Assembly: GCF_028206995.1 (NCBI RefSeq)
Contig: NZ_JAQLFL010000006.1
Coordinates: 40,093-104,092, forward strand
Length of the DNA: 64,000 bases
Origin: Collinsella aerofaciens
Lineage (GTDB): Bacteria; Actinomycetota; Coriobacteriia; Coriobacteriales; Coriobacteriaceae
Direction: 5' to 3'
Both the position numbers and the translations under genes were made by a program. Shown here piece by piece: positions 7,404 to 15,424 of this stretch (position 1 is its first letter; every line of letters starts with the position of its first letter). The notes under the pieces are model-generated. The model saw only the letters and a list, made by a program, of their open reading frames with translations, did no database searches and was not told where the DNA came from.

Positions 7404-8717
7404 ATGAAGCTCACTATAGAATCGATGACCTACGGCGCCGACGGGCTGGCACACGCCGACAACGGCAAGGCCGTCTTTGTGCAGGGCGCCGTGGCAGGCG
7501 ACACCGTCGAGGCCGAGGTCGTACAGGACGGCAAGTCGTTCATGCGTGGCCGCACCACCGAGATTCTGGAGCCAAGCCCCGATCGCATTCAGCCTCCCTG
7601 CCCCTTCGTGGGCATCTGCGGCGGCTGCTCGTGGGGCAATCTCTCACGCACGGCACAGCTCGCCGCCAAGGAGCAAAACCTGCGCTCCACGCTCGAGCGC
7701 ATCGGCAAGTTCGCTCCTGAGCAGGTCGATGAGTTGGTACAGCCCATCTGCCACACCAAGGACGACTGGGGCTACCGCAATAAAATCGAGCTCGAACCGA
7801 CCGTCGTCAACGGTCGCGTGCGCCTTGGCATGCACGGTGTCGATCCTCGCAAGATCGTGACCGTCGATTCGTGCCCGTTGTTCGACAAACGCTTCCCCAA
7901 GGCACTCAAATCGGTCGTCGGCGCGCTCAATTATCTGAGCGGCAGCCACGACCTGGGCCTTGAGCGCGTGGGCATTCGCGCCTCGCGTCGCACCAAGGCA
8001 CTCGAGGTGGCGCTCTGGACGCCTACGGGCTCTTTCCCGCGCTCGCAAGTCTCGCGCGTGTTGGCAGACGCCGCGCACCCCACAAGTGTCGTGCGCGTGA
8101 TGAGCAAGGGCGAAAAGAAGGCCCGCCGTGTCTCCAAGGTCGAAATGCTCGCCGGAGAGGGCTCATGGACCGAGAATATCGCCGAGGGTCAGATGCGCTT
8201 GTCTGCCCCGTCTTTTTTCCAGGTCAACACCAAGGGTGCCGAGATTTTGATCGAGCTTGTCATGGAAGCGCTCGACCCGCAGGAAGACGAGCTTGCCGTG
8301 GACCTGTACTGCGGTGCCGGCACCTTTACCCTGCCGCTCGCCCGCCGCTGCGACTTTGTCGCCGCCGTCGAGGCCTACGGCCCCGCCGTGCGCGACCTGC
8401 GCCGTAACCTGGAGATCAACAAGCTTGATAACGTCGACGTCATTGGCGGAGACGCGGTACGCGAGTTCCCCGACCAGGATGCCGACGTCTTGGTGGTCGA
8501 CCCGCCGCGCGCAGGCCTCGCCCCCGAGGCGATCGACCTTATCGCCAGCACGAGTGCCCGCGACGTCGCCTACGTGAGCTGCGACCCGGCCACCCTGGCG
8601 CGAGATCTCAAACGCTTTGTCGAGGAAGGCACCTTCTCCCCCGTAAAAATCACGCCAGTCGACCTGTTCCCACAAACCTTCCACTGCGAAACCGTCGTCC
8701 ACCTCAAGCGCAACTAG
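7404..8717 (+). CDS. rlmD: 23S rRNA (uracil-C5)-methyltransferase, RlmD/RumA type
   Basis: SAM-dependent RNA 5-methyluridine methyltransferase of 437 residues. A TRAM-like N-terminus (KLTIESMTYGADGLAH) is followed by cysteines suited to an Fe-S cluster (Cys66, Cys72, Cys75 in CPFVGICGGC, and Cys157), the SAM motif DLYCGAGTFTLPLA, VVDPPRAGL, and the catalytic YVSCDPATLARDL with Cys393. The start at 7404 has GCAGGAA close upstream; an earlier in-frame ATG lacks family similarity. RlmD-type 23S specificity is the best match, but a TrmA-like tRNA target cannot be excluded from the sequence alone. Confidence 0.9.
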   Translation: MKLTIESMTYGADGLAHADNGKAVFVQGAVAGDTVEAEVVQDGKSFMRGRTTEILEPSPDRIQPPCPFVGICGGCSWGNLSRTAQLAAKEQNLRSTLERIGKFAPEQVDELVQPICHTKDDWGYRNKIELEPTVVNGRVRLGMHGVDPRKIVTVDSCPLFDKRFPKALKSVVGALNYLSGSHDLGLERVGIRASRRTKALEVALWTPTGSFPRSQVSRVLADAAHPTSVVRVMSKGEKKARRVSKVEMLAGEGSWTENIAEGQMRLSAPSFFQVNTKGAEILIELVMEALDPQEDELAVDLYCGAGTFTLPLARRCDFVAAVEAYGPAVRDLRRNLEINKLDNVDVIGGDAVREFPDQDADVLVVDPPRAGLAPEAIDLIASTSARDVAYVSCDPATLARDLKRFVEEGTFSPVKITPVDLFPQTFHCETVVHLKRN

Positions 8718-8752
8718 ACTGTTTGCCCAAGACCACGCCCGATGATTTTTCT

Positions 8753-8806
8753 GGGACGGGGATTAAATAATCAATTTGCACCGAATGATTATTTAATCCC
8801 CGTCCC
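8753..8806. repeat. REP-like 21-bp perfect hairpin
   Basis: The 21-base arms at 8753-8773 and 8786-8806 are perfectly complementary, start with GGGACGGGGATTAAA and enclose 12 bases. TTTTT follows on the plus strand, so it may also terminate rlmD. The GGGAC-type ends resemble the hairpin at 26812-26855, which suggests a dispersed repeat. Confidence 0.7.
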
Positions 8807-10117: not shown

Positions 10118-11119
10118 ATGGATACACTGCTCGAGGCCATTGACGTCTGCGATGTCGATGGCTTTTGCTATGGCAACTATACGGACGAGGAGGCCGGCAC
10201 CGGTTGCACCGTAATCGTGGCACCCGAGGGCGCCACCGGCGGTGTTGACGTTCGCGGCGGTGCTCCCGCTTCGCGCGAAACCGACCTGCTGCGACCTGAG
10301 AACACCGTCGACAAGGTCCACGCCGTCTGCCTTTCGGGCGGATCGGCCTTTGGCCTCGAGGCTGCAAGCGGCGTCGCTCGCGAGCTTGAGAGCCGCGGCA
10401 TCGGCCTTCCCGTCGGCCCCACGCAGGTGCCTATCGTGTGCTCGAGCTGTATCTTCGACCTCGCCTTTGGTAACCCCACCGTTCGCCCCGACATTGAGGC
10501 CGGCATCGCCGCCGTGCGCGAAGCACTCGACAACACCCCCACCAAGCTCGAACAGGGCAACGTAGGCGCCGGCACGGGCGCTACCGTGGGTAAGCTCATG
10601 GGCCCCGCTACCTGCATGAAGGCCGGCCTTGGCGCTGCCGCCGTGGCGCTCGGCCCCATCAAGGTGGGCGCCGTGGTCTCGGTCAACGCCTGCGGCAACG
10701 TTGTCGACCCCTTCACCGGCGAGTGGGTCGCCGGTATGCGCGCCGCAGCCGATAGCGACCAGATCGTCGACATGGAACTCGCAGCCTTTGCCGCCGCCGG
10801 ATCCATGCAGATGCCGCTCGACCGCACCAACACCACCATCAGCTGCATCGTCACCAACGTGGAACTCACTAAGGCACAAGCCACCAAGGTCTCCCAGATG
10901 GCCGCAGACGCCTACGCACACGCCATCCGTCCCACGCACACCACCAACGACGGCGACACTATCTACACCCTCGCCAGCGGCAAACTGGGCGCCCAGGCAA
11001 GCGCCACCGTTCCCCTAGACCTGCTGGGCATGCTCGCAGTAAGGGCCCTGGAAACTGCCATCGTAAACGGAGCCAAAACCGCCAAAACCTCCCACGGCAT
11101 CCCCGGTGCCGCAAAGTAA
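10118..11119 (+). CDS. P1 (DmpA/S58-type) family peptidase
   Basis: A 333-residue Ntn-type aminopeptidase/amidase homologue related to DmpA and nylon-oligomer hydrolase. Seen: ATGGVDVRGGAPASRETDLL, LSGGSAFGLEAASGV and GNVGAGTGATVGKLMG, all characteristic. Proteins of this family self-cleave to expose a catalytic N-terminal nucleophile in the C-terminal third. GATAGGAG precedes the ATG. The gene ends 12 bp before a long palindrome and converges on the glycosyltransferase gene. Physiological substrate unknown. Confidence 0.9.
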   Translation: MDTLLEAIDVCDVDGFCYGNYTDEEAGTGCTVIVAPEGATGGVDVRGGAPASRETDLLRPENTVDKVHAVCLSGGSAFGLEAASGVARELESRGIGLPVGPTQVPIVCSSCIFDLAFGNPTVRPDIEAGIAAVREALDNTPTKLEQGNVGAGTGATVGKLMGPATCMKAGLGAAAVALGPIKVGAVVSVNACGNVVDPFTGEWVAGMRAAADSDQIVDMELAAFAAAGSMQMPLDRTNTTISCIVTNVELTKAQATKVSQMAADAYAHAIRPTHTTNDGDTIYTLASGKLGAQASATVPLDLLGMLAVRALETAIVNGAKTAKTSHGIPGAAK

Positions 11120-11131
11120 ACTAGCTCGTCC

Positions 11132-11256
11132 GGTTGCCCGGTGGGCCTTGGTTATGTTTGCTGCTCTACAGTCCTGGCTCGCACGAAGAGCACATTAAGT
11201 GCTCTTCGGCTCGTGCGGAACTCGCGACAAACATAACCAAGCCCCACCGGGCAACC
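11132..11256. repeat. Long palindrome E1 (core type A, locus-specific arms)
   Basis: A 29-nt left arm (11132-11160, starting GGTTGCCCGGTGGG) is complementary to the right arm (11228-11256) at 28 of 29 positions. The 67-nt centre (11161-11227) forms its own nested stem around GAGCACATTAAGTGCTC. The centre is shared, in opposite orientation, with the palindrome at 11347-11456, but the arms are not. Confidence 0.9.
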
Positions 11257-11346
11257 TACCAACCAGATTCTTTTCAGCCCAGGCCCCTGTGTACCGCGCG
11301 TCGAAGATCTTCAAATTCACCTATCTGACAATCGATTTATAGCAGA

Positions 11347-11456
11347 GGCCCCTTGGCCTTTAGTTTGATACAAGTTCCGCACGAACCGGAAAGCACTTAA
11401 TGTGCTTTCCGTGCAAGCAGGACTGTTCGCAGTAGCAAACTAAAGGCCAAGGGGCC
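11347..11456. repeat. Long palindrome E2 (core type A, locus-specific arms)
   Basis: The arms 11347-11367 and 11436-11456 are perfectly complementary over 21 nt. The centre (11368-11435) read on the minus strand matches that of E1 from ACAGTCCTG through GCACATTAAGTGCT to TCGTGCGGAACT, with few differences. The outer arm sequence is unrelated apart from the innermost GTTTG/CAAAC. It lies 32 bases beyond the glycosyltransferase stop. The 11120-11488 interval holds E1, E2 and no gene. Confidence 0.9.
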
Positions 11457-11488
11457 CAGTCAACCTATCAGCAGCGATTACTCAGCAG

Positions 11489-12520
11489 CTAGTTGAATTT
11501 GAAGATCTTTGAGGCAAGACGGTATAGGCCGAGTGTGGTTTTGTCTCCGGCCCGTCCGCGCAGATTGGTGAAGAACCCGACCACGCCGTAGCGGGCACGA
11601 CGATACATGCGCTCGTCGTAGGCCTTCAAATCATTCCACAGCGTCTTTAGGCGCTCGTCGGCGCAATCTTCCTCAGAAAGCTTGGTGAGAACCGAGCAGA
11701 TCGCCATCATCATGGTGAAGTAGCCCATCATGTACGAACGCAGGCGCGACGACTCGACATCGCTGTACAGGTGGTACGACTCCATCATGATACGCGTAAC
11801 ACGGAACTGCTGGTCCAGACGCTTGACCATCGTGGCCTCGTTGACACTCTGGCCCTCGCGACCGATAAAGTAGCGATAGAGGTCGATGTCGGCGTAGTAC
11901 ATGGTCTTGCAACGCGGCAACGGCACATAGGCGTAGATGTTGTCCACATAGAACGTGTGCGGCGGCATGGGAAGGTTGGACTCGCGCAGCACATCCGTGC
12001 GATAGCACAGGCTGTGCATGAGTAGGTTCTGGTCCAGGCGGAAATGACCGATCTGATCCCAGGAAAAGATCTTTTTGCGCGGCAGGGCAAATTTGTAGCC
12101 AATAGCGGTATGCGTGCCCTCGTAAACCTTCTCGTACACGTAGTTCGAGATAAACAGGTCAACGCGCTGATCGCGCTCTTCAAAGCCACGCAGAATCGAC
12201 AGCATAGTCGAAAGAGCCGCAGCGTCGAGCCAGTCGTCCGAGTCGACGACCTTGTAGTAAGTGCCCTGTGCCTCGCGCAGACCCGAAAGGACGGCAATAC
12301 CGTGGCCGCCGTTCTCCTGGTGTACCGCGCGAATGATACCGGGATAACGCGCCTCCCACTCGTCGGCCTTGGCGGCCGTCTCGTCCTTGGAGCCGTCGTC
12401 CACCACGATAATCTCGATATCGGTGGCGTAATTGCTCCCCTCCAAGATGGAGGTGATGCAATGGTCCATGTCCTTGGCGGCGTTATACGAGGGAATACCG
12501 AATGTTATGACTTTATGCAT
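11489..12520 (-). CDS. Glycosyltransferase family 2
   Basis: GT-A fold transferase of 343 residues. ITFGIPSYNAA opens the nucleotide-sugar domain, EIIVVDDGSKDET follows, and VVDSDDWLD holds the metal-binding DxD-like acidic cluster. The C-terminal half, rich in Tyr and Arg, is typical of polysaccharide-building GT2 enzymes. Its ATG lies inside the last codons of glf (8-base overlap), so the two are co-translated. That pairing suggests a galactofuranosyl or related transferase acting on a cell-envelope glycan; acceptor and linkage are unknown. Confidence 0.9.
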   Translation of the reverse strand: MHKVITFGIPSYNAAKDMDHCITSILEGSNYATDIEIIVVDDGSKDETAAKADEWEARYPGIIRAVHQENGGHGIAVLSGLREAQGTYYKVVDSDDWLDAAALSTMLSILRGFEERDQRVDLFISNYVYEKVYEGTHTAIGYKFALPRKKIFSWDQIGHFRLDQNLLMHSLCYRTDVLRESNLPMPPHTFYVDNIYAYVPLPRCKTMYYADIDLYRYFIGREGQSVNEATMVKRLDQQFRVTRIMMESYHLYSDVESSRLRSYMMGYFTMMMAICSVLTKLSEEDCADERLKTLWNDLKAYDERMYRRARYGVVGFFTNLRGRAGDKTTLGLYRLASKIFKFN

Positions 12521-13715
12521 GGCAGGCGATAATCTCATCCGAAAGATCGAGGGCGGAATTGGTCACGGCGTCCATATCGTAGTAACGATACTCGGCCAGA
12601 CGACCCACCGGGTGGAAGTTCGTCAGGTTCTGGACGCGCTCAAGATAGCGCTCATAGAGCTCACGGTTCTCGGGCTCAAGAATGGCGTAGTACGGCGTCT
12701 CGCCCGAGCCGGGCGTATAGGCCTTGGAGTACTCCTTCATGATGGTGGTCTTGCCGGGCAGGACCTGACCGGTCATGTTCTTGAACTCGGTAATACGCGT
12801 ATAGTCCTCGCTCGTGGTGTAGTTGACGGTGCCCACGGGCTGGAACTGATCCATATCGAGCGTCTCGAACTTCATATCGAGCGTGCGGTACGGCAGCGCG
12901 CCCAGGTCGAGGTTGAACAGCTCGTCGAGTGGACCGGTGTAGACGATCTCGCCGCCATAGACCTTGCCGTCGATCTTGACGGTAGTCTCGTCGATCTCAA
13001 AGAGATCGCGGGCGTCCACGTCGCAGAACACGTCGATTAGGTCGTGGTCGAGCATGTGCTCAAAGAGCGCCGTGTAGCCCTCCTGCGGCATGCCCTGGAA
13101 GGGAGCTTGCGGGAAGTAGCGGTCATCATCACCCACAAAGACGGGAACGCGGCCGGTGATCGAGGGGTCGATCTGATCGGGCGTCTGGCCCCACTGCTTC
13201 ATGGTGTAATGCAAAAAGACGTTCTCGTAGACATAATCGGCGACCTCGGCCAAGTCGGGGTCGTTCTTCTTACGAAGCTCCATAATGGGCACCTTGACAT
13301 CCTTGCCAAAGGTCTCCACGAGCTTCTGATACAGCTCCTCGCCGCGCTCGTCACCAAAGGCGAGCTTGAGACTCGCATGGTTGAAGGGCACGGGCATAAG
13401 GGTACCGTTGATGTTGGCGAGCACCTTGTGCTGATAATCCGTCCACTTGGTAAAGCGCGACAGGAAATTGTGCACGCGCTCGTTAAAAGTGTGATAGATA
13501 TGCGGACCGTACTCGTGGATCAGGATTCCGGCCTCGTCAGTGCAGTCATAGGCATTGCCCGCAATGTGGCTACGGCGCTCCAAAACGGCAACACGATAGC
13601 CGATGGTCTCGGCAAGACGGCGGGCACAAACGGCACCGGCATATCCGGCACCGACGACAATCATGTCGTACGCGCCGGCGTTAAAGCCTTCAGGCAGGCC
13701 TGAGGTAATCTGCAT
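12513..13715 (-). CDS. glf: UDP-galactopyranose mutase
   Basis: FAD enzyme that interconverts UDP-galactopyranose and UDP-galactofuranose, the precursor of galactofuranose glycans. The N-terminal YDMIVVGAGYAGAVCARRLAE is the dinucleotide-binding fold. EYGPHIYHT, WTDYQHKVLA and VNYTTSEDYTRITEFK are family-typical substrate regions. At 400 residues it is full length, and AAGGAG lies 5 nt before the ATG. It overlaps the downstream GT2 gene by 8 bases, forming a two-gene envelope-glycan operon transcribed away from pta. Confidence 0.94.
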   Translation of the reverse strand: MQITSGLPEGFNAGAYDMIVVGAGYAGAVCARRLAETIGYRVAVLERRSHIAGNAYDCTDEAGILIHEYGPHIYHTFNERVHNFLSRFTKWTDYQHKVLANINGTLMPVPFNHASLKLAFGDERGEELYQKLVETFGKDVKVPIMELRKKNDPDLAEVADYVYENVFLHYTMKQWGQTPDQIDPSITGRVPVFVGDDDRYFPQAPFQGMPQEGYTALFEHMLDHDLIDVFCDVDARDLFEIDETTVKIDGKVYGGEIVYTGPLDELFNLDLGALPYRTLDMKFETLDMDQFQPVGTVNYTTSEDYTRITEFKNMTGQVLPGKTTIMKEYSKAYTPGSGETPYYAILEPENRELYERYLERVQNLTNFHPVGRLAEYRYYDMDAVTNSALDLSDEIIACHA

Positions 13716-13946: not shown

Positions 13947-14927
13947 ATGAGTGATTTCCTAAACCGTATGAAGTCTGCCGCCAAGGCCGACCTTAAGACG
14001 ATCGTCCTGCCCGAGGGCGAGGATCCGCGCACTATCGTCGCGGCCACCAAAATCATCGAGGAGGGCCTGGCAAAGATCGTCATCCTGGGCAACCCCGACG
14101 AGATCAACGTTCCCGGCGCTACCGTTATCGACCCACGCAATGCCGAGAAGCACGAGGAGTACGCACAGAAGTTTGCCGAGCTCCGCGCCAAGAAGGGCGT
14201 TACCATCGAGCAGGCTCGCGCCCAGGTGATGGACGCCACCTACTTTGGCACCATGATGGTCAAGATGGGCGATGCCGACGGCCTGGTCTCCGGCGCCTGC
14301 CACTCCACCGCCGACACCCTGCGCCCCGCGCTGCAGATCCTCAAAACCGCCCCGGGCACCAAGCTGGTCTCGGCCTTCTTCGTGATGTGCACCGACACCC
14401 CGCAGTTCGGCACCGACGGCACGCTGATCTTCGCCGACTGTGGTCTCAATATCAACCCGTCCTCCGACGAACTCTCCGAGATCGCCATCGCCTCCGCTCA
14501 CTCCTGGTCCACCTTCATGGGCAACGTTGAGCCGCACGTGGCCATGCTCTCCTACTCCACCATGGGTTCCGCCGGTGGCGAGGTCGCCAAGAAGGTCCAG
14601 GAGGCCGTGAAGTTCTGCAAGGAGAAGGCTCCCGAGCTCGCCATCGACGGTGACCTGCAGCTCGATGCTGCCATCGTCCCCACCGTCGCCCAGCTCAAGG
14701 CTCCCGGCTCCTCTGTCGCCGGCAAGGCCAACGTGCTCGTATTCCCCGACCTCGAGGCCGGCAACATCGGCTACAAGCTGGTCCAGCGCTTCGCCGGCGC
14801 CGACGCCTACGGCCCCATCCTGCAGGGCATCGCCAAGCCGGTTAACGACCTTTCGCGCGGCTGCTCTGCCGACGACATCGTGGGTGTCGTGGCCATCACC
14901 GCCGTCCAGGCTCAGATGGCTGAGTAG
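13947..14927 (+). CDS. pta: Phosphate acetyltransferase
   Basis: Converts acetyl-CoA and phosphate to acetyl phosphate, feeding acetate kinase for substrate-level ATP. The 326-residue short form has the typical KTIVLPEGEDPRTI start, MVKMGDADGLVSGACHSTADTLRPALQILK in the middle, and VLVFPDLEAGNIGYKLVQR near the end. AAGGAG lies 4 nt before the ATG. Two acetate kinase genes lie downstream in opposite orientation, so pathway partners are adjacent but separately transcribed. Confidence 0.96.
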   Translation: MSDFLNRMKSAAKADLKTIVLPEGEDPRTIVAATKIIEEGLAKIVILGNPDEINVPGATVIDPRNAEKHEEYAQKFAELRAKKGVTIEQARAQVMDATYFGTMMVKMGDADGLVSGACHSTADTLRPALQILKTAPGTKLVSAFFVMCTDTPQFGTDGTLIFADCGLNINPSSDELSEIAIASAHSWSTFMGNVEPHVAMLSYSTMGSAGGEVAKKVQEAVKFCKEKAPELAIDGDLQLDAAIVPTVAQLKAPGSSVAGKANVLVFPDLEAGNIGYKLVQRFAGADAYGPILQGIAKPVNDLSRGCSADDIVGVVAITAVQAQMAE

Positions 14928-14943
14928 CGGACATATCCCCGCC

Positions 14944-15074
14944 GAAGGCAGCGCAGGTTAACCCCTGAAAACGTCCTCGACCAATGAAACGCCCCCGTTC
15001 TGCTCCTTCGGAGCTACGAACGGGGGCGTTTCTGGTCTGCGGAGTGTTTTCAGGGGTTAACCTGCGCTGCCTTC
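14944..15074. repeat. Long palindrome E3 (perfect 29-bp arms)
   Basis: GAAGGCAGCGCAGG opens the left arm (14944-14972), which is perfectly complementary to 15046-15074 over 29 nt. The centre (14973-15045) has a second stem of AAACGCCCCCGTTC with GAACGGGGGCGTTT and an innermost GCTCC/GGAGC hairpin. GTCCT and TGCGGA at the edges of the centre echo the edges of the E1/E2 core. It begins 16 bases after the pta stop, between convergent pta and ackA. Confidence 0.9.
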
Positions 15075-15424
15075 TACCGTCACGTGGCATTCAGGGCATC
15101 TGGGGTGGACGGCGGCTTGGCTACGAGCTGGGGCTGAAAATCTGAATGGATGGGTGCCGTTGCTGGGAGCGCAGGCGTTGCTGATGATGATCACTTTGGA
15201 GATTGAAAGGCCGGTGGGCTTCGGCGGTTGTTGTGCCGGAAACTACATCCCAGTTTGGAGGCGGATTGTGGGATGTGGCTTCCGCCTGGGACCTGTTTGG
15301 GAAACTTTGGGACGGAATTTTGCTTTATTGTGGGTCGCACTTTCCGCAACGTGCCTCAACCGGAAAGCGTGTCCCAGTATTTGCGCTCGAAATGGGATGG
15401 GGTTTCCGCCGTCCACCTGCTAGC
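15075..15424. other. Unexplained non-coding stretch with 12-bp inverted ends
   Basis: No gene is supported here: open frames lack SD sites and similarity. GGTGGACGGCGG near 15104 and CCGCCGTCCACC near 15407 are exact inverted repeats about 300 bp apart. Internal words such as CATCCCA/TGGGATG and TTTGGGA recur. It could be a decayed small mobile element or gene remnant. Confidence 0.3.

What the first reader, a model, noticed from the sequence alone, without database searches (positions are those of the whole stretch)
11132..11456. Two long palindromes share a centre but not their arms (core type A)
E1 (11132-11256) and E2 (11347-11456) stand side by side in opposite orientation. Their centres match closely (ACAGTCCTG, GCACATTAAGTGCT, TCGTGCGGAACT), while the 29-nt and 21-nt arms are different sequences, each almost perfectly self-complementary. 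A MITE has conserved ends; here the ends are unique to each site and the middle is conserved. That could arise if a mobile hairpin core primes snap-back copying of the flanking strand, or if the core is a protein site around which inverted duplications are repeatedly generated. I know of no described family with this design.
Basis: partly seen in the sequence, partly recalled or inferred. Interest (0 to 1): 0.85.

Follow-up and report, generated by a model that had tools for sequence, protein, structure and literature searches.

The report
Conserved hairpin core, locally copied arms
Gut bacteria of the Collinsella aerofaciens group carry dozens of long DNA hairpins that share a conserved centre but have arms unique to each site, and at a good part of the sites the arms look like the remains of a mirror-image copy of the neighbouring sequence, as if the centre made the cell copy its surroundings backwards.

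Summary
Twenty-two of 43 Collinsella genomes hold 11-30 type A cores each, four hold 1-7, 17 none. Of 121 distinct arm pairs read, 118 are largely self-complementary (17-49 bp); arms are hardly shared between loci. At orthologous loci both arms change together and faster than the flanks, including matched insertions. Mismatches show no G-U excess. New here: inverted similarity runs on outside the arms at 14 of 34 loci (one, L143, is another palindromic repeat), and at seven it reaches coding sequence, each time on the 5' side of the core. Gene ends without a core rarely show this (2 of 120, against 5 of 10 with one). A second core type (B; window 14944-15074) has the same design. Best reading: a dispersed hairpin core sits at the centre of local inverted duplications made by fold-back copying of the 5' flank; template switching keeps the inner arms paired. 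The copying and any mobility are inferred; no enzyme was found. REP/RAYT, MITE, RNA and terminator readings fit worse.

The parts
11132..11160 (+). E1 left arm (gene side)
   Evidence: 12 nt lie between it and the stop codon of the Peptidase_S58 gene 10118-11119
11161..11227 (+). E1 core, type A; conserved blocks ACAGTCCTG 11168-11176, GCACATTAAGTGC 11190-11202, TCGTGCGGAACT 11211-11222
   Evidence: aligned across loci
11228..11256 (+). E1 right arm
   Evidence: in 16 other genomes this allele type in 10, another paired type in 5, a recombinant with unpaired arms in 1
11347..11371 (-). E2 right arm (distal from its gene)
11372..11431 (-). E2 core, type A, inverted relative to E1
11432..11456 (-). 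E2 left arm (gene side)
   Evidence: 32 nt lie between it and the end of the glycosyltransferase family 2 gene 11489-12538 (-)
11292..11327 (+). degraded inverted copy of the glycosyltransferase gene's 3' end, on the far side of E2
   Evidence: score 22.3 outside the arms, 38.5 with them; also (pair I3)
11486..11524 (-). source segment: 3' end of the glycosyltransferase gene and stop
14944..14972 (+). type B hairpin, left arm
14973..15045 (+). type B core (GTCCTCGACCA...TGGTCTGCGGAGT)
15046..15074 (+). type B hairpin, right arm (29 of 29 paired)
15091..15126 (+). possible degraded inverted copy of the 3' end of the phosphate acetyltransferase gene
   Evidence: score 15.5; 2 of 120 control gene ends reach 15
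14887..14923 (+). source segment in the phosphate acetyltransferase gene (13947-14927)

Best explanation
E1 and E2 are copies of a dispersed, non-coding hairpin core (type A) that sits at the centre of local inverted duplications. Most likely, when the core arrives at or is replicated through a site, a strand folds back and copies the DNA on the 5' (ACAGTCCTG) side, so that the sequence on the 3' side becomes a reverse complement of the 5' flank, at some loci including the last tens of bases of the neighbouring gene. The outer part of the copy then decays, while the 17-49 bp next to the core are kept paired by repeated template switching between the arms during replication, which also lets both arms change together. 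SHOWN: the family, its core and locus-specific paired arms, coordinated arm turnover, inverted similarity beyond the arms at a good part of the loci. SUGGESTED: its polarity. INFERRED: fold-back copying as the cause, its coupling to the core, past dispersal of the core, template switching as the means of upkeep. A cellular function is not established; the position just after stop codons at 16 of 34 type A loci would suit an effect on transcript 3' ends.
For: Family: 22 of 43 same-genus genomes with 11-30 copies, 4 with 1-7, 17 with none; the 80 rows shown of 120 genome-contig hits are all Collinsella but one Coriobacteriaceae MAG (scan stopped at its limit); none in viral contigs. Arms: 118 of 121 distinct pairs complementary, mean 32 bp. 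Turnover: 15 orthologous pairs with flanks under 2% diverged (mean 1.25%) differ by 12% in the inner 20 arm positions, 7 of the 15 being identical there; in the under-2% class 34 paired double changes, 11 single, 1 unpaired double (10 allele pairs); 15 of 30 close allele pairs differ by an internal length change, measured on one arm with the other at least 95% complementary, and seen base by base at L042/L117 and L060/L072 and L113/L130. Extended duplication: 15 of 55 representatives above the 99th percentile of 2932 cross-locus comparisons, Mann-Whitney p 2.9e-6; 14 of 34 loci with inverted score 13 or more against 1 of 34 direct, L143 being in both. Side: in the 7 loci of that kind where a matching segment is coding (L143 set aside) it is the 5' one; the nearest gene is nearer on the 5' side in 27 of 33 loci, median 26 against 225 nt, p 0.0015. 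Control: inverted score 15 or more at 2 of 120 gene ends without a core and 5 of 10 with one; direct 3 of 120 and 1 of 10. Two groups of alleles at one locus carry different outer sequences 50-65 nt from the core, each echoed by its own inverted copy (L056/L035 and L081/L115).
Against: No empty site shows that one arm pre-existed; the occupied/empty locus is undecided, and E1 itself has no outer copy (9.1). Twenty of 34 loci show no outer inverted similarity at that cut-off, and the per-locus figure took the best member for the inverted score only, which favours it. The side argument is not independent of the distance difference: a gene lay within 120 nt on the 5' side at 23 loci and on the 3' side at 10, so 7 against 0 has p about 0.06 by hand. 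Copies with arm score under 14 were dropped before the counts, and the sets required the exact core block, which leaves out such copies as the unpaired G007 E1; both favour pairing. Flank divergence comes from local alignments and may understate intergenic divergence. Alleles are exchanged between strains (recombinants). A plain terminator at one locus also shows paired changes only, though that control let just two positions per arm vary and matched 19 of 21 genomes. No candidate enzyme was tied to the elements.
Confidence: 0.53

Rival explanations
1. A structured RNA (3'-end hairpin or processing signal) whose arms are kept paired by selection through compensatory mutations; no copying is involved.
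For: Strong folds; conserved blocks around the inner stem; 16 of 34 type A loci and 10 of 11 well-formed type B loci lie within 46 nt after a co-directional stop codon.
Against: Mismatches in 3802 arm positions: G-U 34, A-C 42, other 57, no G-U preference; orientation to genes is mixed for type A; matched multi-base insertions in both arms; outer inverted copies of coding ends; no Rfam match at the element (one hit with E 0.093 inside a gene; only tRNAs in 14 element loci).
Confidence: 0.15
2. Ordinary intergenic hairpins shaped by general replication template switching; the repeated core is an old interspersed repeat that supplies a fold-back point and is not coupled to its own dispersal.
For: Template switching is reported to create and mend hairpins, homogenise arms and invert spacers (abstracts of PMC8794818 and PMC8604942); a shortened copy with inverted core occurs at E2 in G019; plain terminator control, weak.
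Against: The core recurs at 36-38 loci and expanded in one clade, which a passive fold-back point does not explain; gene ends without a core rarely have inverted copies.
Confidence: 0.3
3. REP/REPIN-type element moved by a RAYT transposase.
For: Intergenic, palindromic, often in inverted pairs with cores about 190-290 bp apart; Y1_Tnp proteins occur in all 22 multi-copy genomes.
Against: Y1_Tnp also occurs in 15 of the 21 other genomes; the conserved part is the middle, not the stem; GTAG or CGTC near a foot in only 27 and 24 of 181 copies; no type A core and no well-formed type B hairpin in 19 fetched regions around Y1_Tnp genes (not all Y1_Tnp genes were fetched).
Confidence: 0.05
4. A mobile core that inserts into the loop of pre-existing terminator-like palindromes; the arms are older than the core.
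For: At the occupied/empty locus the empty alleles have a small hairpin GGCGGAG/CTCCGCC where an occupied allele has its outer arm.
Against: Arms of 17-49 bp are far longer than that hairpin; inverted copies of coding ends are not expected from pre-existing terminators.
Confidence: 0.12

Closest known systems
REP/BIME/REPIN elements with RAYT transposases
   Same: short interspersed intergenic palindromes, often inverted pairs
   Different: REP stems are 5-13 bp, conserved within a family and GTAG/CGTC-tagged, with G-T pairing often observed (passages of PMC3733652); here the stem is 17-49 bp, particular to each locus, untagged and without G-U excess
MITEs (definition recalled)
   Same: non-coding, dispersed, inverted repeats
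   Different: the ends are not conserved, the middle is; no transposase family tied to it
Template-switch (quasi-palindrome) mutations that create or repair hairpins
   Same: matched changes in both arms, inverted spacer, new inverted copies (abstracts of PMC8794818, PMC8604942)
   Different: here centred on one recurrent core at tens of loci
Intrinsic terminators
   Same: hairpins, many just after stop codons
   Different: a scan accepts no whole E1 or E2 hairpin as a terminator, only a 5-pair stem inside one E2 arm, at chance level; core of 60-73 nt; separate terminator-like hairpins lie near some copies
Integron attC sites (recalled, not tested)
   Same: long imperfect hairpins with variable parts and conserved boxes
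   Different: in attC the boxes near the ends are conserved and the apex varies; here the reverse

Membership tests
REP/REPIN | GTAG or CGTC tag at the stem foot | tested here: not met
   27 and 24 of 181 copies have such a tetramer, either strand, within about 20 nt of a foot
REP/REPIN | stem sequence shared between copies | tested here: not met
   only six pairs of loci share any 14-mer of the arms
REP/REPIN | association with a RAYT gene | tested here: inconclusive
   Y1_Tnp in 22 of 22 multi-copy and 15 of 21 other genomes; no core in 19 regions around Y1_Tnp genes
MITE | terminal inverted repeats shared between copies | tested here: not met
MITE | target-site duplication | not tested
   arm feet are not sharp ends; no search made
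Intrinsic terminator | GC stem followed directly by a T run | tested here: not met
   E1/E2 region only: one 5-pair stem within an E2 arm, 0.8 expected by chance
Structured RNA | G-U intermediates in excess over A-C on the transcribed strand | tested here: not met
   G-U 34, A-C 42
Known Rfam family | score above gathering threshold | tested here: not met
Template-switch product | matched multi-base changes and spacer inversion between arms | tested here: met
   spacer inversion in one genome only
Copying by a reverse transcriptase | RVT_1 protein in the genomes that carry the element | tested here: not met
   RVT_1 in 7 of 21 multi-copy and 5 of 21 other genomes searched (G064 was not among the 42)

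The most novel reading that the evidence does not exclude
A new class of selfish or domesticated DNA: a 60-75 nt mobile hairpin core without ends of its own, which on landing beside a gene primes snap-back synthesis on the strand 5' of it and so builds its inverted repeats from host sequence, then keeps rewriting them by hairpin-templated conversion; at least two core types (A and B), possibly more, have spread this way in one clade of gut bacteria.
Probability: 0.3. Interest if true: 0.92.

Novelty: new variant of a known kind. Interest (0 to 1): 0.76.

Why it matters
Dispersed repeats are usually recognised by conserved ends; here the ends seem to be made locally, so methods that look for shared termini would miss them. 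The loci are a natural experiment on how cells copy hairpins: many sites, many strains, matched changes in both arms, and gene ends that tell which arm is the original. That makes an old question, whether perfect stems arise by stepwise compensation or by template switching, directly testable in a common gut bacterium.

Tried and rejected
Rfam on the locus and on 14 element loci: one low hit inside a gene, otherwise tRNAs. Viral contigs: none. Y1_Tnp and RVT_1: no useful link. A loop motif shared by types A and B (TCCT[CG] with TGCGGA), searched alone with a short stem, hardly exceeds its reversed control (5 against 1 in 400 kb of G014, 1 against 1 in the window, 0-2 against 0-2 in four other genomes), so it does not define a superfamily by itself. 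Empty site in distant Collinsella by the upstream gene: the gene is followed by other sequence, uninformative. Locus L158: flank present in one genome only. An RNA gene just upstream of type A copies whose left gene is reversed: tRNA genes reading away from the core at L096 and L131 (those of L094 lie some 6 kb off), no general rule. Strand bias to replication was not tested. Genes between an inverted pair in L051: no Pfam or PADLOC match, so a first guess of an AbiE-type pair is dropped. Corrections to my notes: one search has no such count, but one search gives 22 multi-copy genomes and 17 without (my note said 23 and 16), and one search gives 10 of 11 type B loci with real arms (my note said 11 of 12).

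Full report
What is there. E1 and E2 are present as described: 29-nt and 25-nt arms at 97% and 96% complementarity around cores that match each other in opposite orientation. They lie between two convergent genes, a Peptidase_S58 protein (10118-11119, +) and a family 2 glycosyltransferase (11489-12538, -). The ACAGTCCTG end of each core faces its own gene; 12 and 32 nt separate the arms from the two stop codons. Folding energies are about ten standard deviations below shuffles.

The family. The exact 13-mer from the tip of the core has 8-19 copies in 16 of 35 same-genus genomes, one in two and none in 17; two of 23 genomes of other genera have one. A pattern that also covers the GTGCGGAA block, with 2 mismatches, finds 11-30 copies in 22 of 43 same-genus genomes (21 of them 23-30; the lowest is a 72% complete genome), 1-7 in four and none in 17. 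Ninety-six distinct copies were printed and 205 collected, in 38 locus clusters. The inner stem varies with compensating changes (for example GGAAAGCAC/GTGCTTTCC and GAAGGCCAC/GTGGCCTTC), while ACAGTCCTG, CACATTAAGTG and GTGCGGAA are nearly constant. The constancy of the last two is partly by construction, since the searches used them; two related hairpins with other tips were seen (L009, L017).

The arms. Of the 205 copies 178 had both sides in hand and a recognisable left block. They give 121 distinct arm pairs; 118 reach the pairing cut-off (mean 32 bp, 17-49; 46 without a mismatch), three do not (L122, L190, L200). Some of the 118 are partly paired recombinants (L119, L162), and copies with an altered core block, such as the unpaired G007 copy of E1, were not in this set. 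Six pairs of loci share a 14-mer in the arms. Over 3802 arm positions there are 133 mismatches: 34 G-U, 42 A-C, 57 other. If pairing were kept for an RNA read from the core strand, G-U should exceed A-C; it does not.

Coordinated turnover. For orthologous alleles with flanks under 2% diverged there are 34 paired double changes, 11 single and 1 unpaired double change (10 allele pairs); under 5%: 153, 80, 12 (61 pairs); under 10%: 241, 124, 17 (103 pairs); above: 143, 44, 1 (32 pairs). Forty-two pairs with ungapped arm identity under 60% were kept apart; paired changes dominate there too (543 against 53 single and 30 unpaired). Copies with arm score under 14 had been dropped. Inner-arm divergence averages 12% where flanks differ by 1.25% (15 pairs, 7 identical) and 15% where they differ by 3.0% (70 pairs, 30 identical); so turnover is uneven, many pairs unchanged and others replaced. 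By alignment, 15 of 30 close allele pairs differ by an internal length change of the arm. L042 and L117 share 98% of their flanks yet each arm is 4 nt longer in L117, with 12 further paired differences counted without gaps; L060 and L072 differ by a matched 8-nt block; L113 and L130 by a matched 6-nt block. E1 has two allele types in 16 genomes (10 and 5) and one recombinant with unpaired arms; E2 has one type in 12, another in 3, whose six arm differences (read on G006 and G027) are all paired, and in G019 a shortened copy with inverted core. G060 carries another unpaired recombinant. Broken pairing thus exists. A plain terminator beside one locus shows only paired changes among three arm alleles (4 paired, 0 single), but that pattern let only two positions per arm vary and matched 19 of 21 genomes: a weak hint that arm conversion is general.

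Complementarity beyond the arms. The 120 nt outside one arm were compared with the reverse complement of the 120 nt outside the other. In 55 representatives of 36 loci, 15 exceed the 99th and 11 the 99.9th percentile of 2932 cross-locus comparisons (Mann-Whitney p 2.9e-6; up to two alleles per locus, so not all independent). With the best member per locus, 14 of 34 loci score 13 or more inverted and 1 of 34 direct; L143, a separate palindromic repeat, is in both. At E2 the match is 11292-11327 against 11486-11524, the last codons of the glycosyltransferase; the type B hairpin of the window has 15091-15126 against 14887-14923, the end of the phosphate acetyltransferase gene; E1 has none. At L035, L081, L093 and L193 the match runs for about 65-80 nt. 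Setting L143 aside, a matching segment is coding at seven loci, always the one on the ACAGTCCTG side: the 3' end of a co-directional gene at six and the start of a reversed gene at one (L075). The nearest gene is closer on that side in 27 of 33 loci (median 26 against 225 nt, Wilcoxon p 0.0015). The two facts are linked: genes lay within 120 nt on that side at 23 loci and on the other at 10, and 7 against 0 has a one-sided p of about 0.06 (by hand). Among gene ends followed by at least 150 nt in the window and in 400 kb of G014, 2 of 120 without a core reach an inverted score of 15 (3 of 120 direct) and 5 of 10 with a core do (1 of 10 direct). At one locus two groups of alleles carry different outer sequences 50-65 nt from the core, each matched by its own inverted copy, so duplication or conversion has recurred.

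Type B. A second core (TCCTCGNNCATG...CTGCGGA) gives 9-16 pattern hits in 21 of the same 22 genomes and 4 in the incomplete one, and single hits in six of the 56 other genomes; some hits are one copy counted twice. Of 16 loci read, 11 have real arms, 10 of these 8-30 nt after a co-directional stop; 3 of 11 have outer inverted similarity of 13 or more (2.5% of 240 control comparisons do), with the coding part on the 5' side in all three. Both types have TCC-T[CG]-stem-TGC-GGA, but a search for that loop alone hardly exceeds its control, so a common origin is only a thought.

Empty sites. At the L054 locus 5 of 19 genomes read have the element (intergenic 237-238 nt) and 14 do not (72-74 nt); a further match (L341) was left out because it lies at a contig end. 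The empty alleles have a short hairpin GGCGGAG/CTCCGCC where an occupied allele has its outer arm. The inverted gene-end score is 10.4-12.4 in occupied and at most 7.5 in empty alleles, but the direct score of the longer occupied alleles is 9.0-11.0, so this decides nothing. At another locus 21 of 22 genomes have one or both elements of a pair (both found by pattern in 16; three of the others are cut by contig ends) and G014 lacks both, its outer flanks joined at an 8-nt repeat, most simply a deletion.

Mechanism. Matched indels, outer inverted copies of gene ends and their side are most simply explained if a strand carrying the core folds back and copies what lies 5' of it. Template switching is reported to make and mend hairpins, homogenise arms and invert spacers (abstracts of PMC8794818 and PMC8604942). 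What is new here is that it is centred on a recurrent core. Whether the core is mobile and which enzyme is involved is open: Y1_Tnp proteins occur in all 22 multi-copy genomes but also in 15 of 21 others, and no core lies in 19 regions around such genes; RVT_1 proteins occur in 7 of 21 and 5 of 21.

Literature. The searches listed no paper whose title or abstract describes such a family. PMC8040213 reports palindromic candidate RNAs from gut microbes and one Collinsella candidate upstream of a ribosomal protein gene (passages); its tables could not be read here, so some copies may be listed there without this interpretation.

Noticed in passing
window 8752-8806: Perfect 21-bp hairpin with a 12-nt loop after the gene ending at 8717; long arms without a core.
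   Followed up: no
L162, L219, L220, L222, L227 and L313, L319, L320: A further hairpin group with a core like GCAATCTG...CACCTTGC and locus-specific arms; in G059, G060 and G011 it stands where the left half of a type A element would be.
   Followed up: partly
L005, L032, L074, L086, L105 and others: A repeat of the opposite design: conserved arms (TAAGTTGCGGTGAAATAGGG) with a loop that differs from copy to copy.
   Followed up: no
L051 1107-2890: Two open frames without Pfam or PADLOC match (287 and 342 aa) lie between an inverted pair of type A elements that is about 290 bp apart in G011 (L059) but 2.2 kb apart in G007 and G018.
   Followed up: partly
contig ends of G001, G003, G009, G010, G029: Draft contigs often end inside or beside the core, as expected for a repeated long palindrome, so copy numbers in drafts may be too low.
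   Followed up: no
L234 1420 (G002): A hairpin with the TCCTC/TGCGGA loop in a genome without type A copies (where the reversed control of G002 also gave one hit).
   Followed up: no
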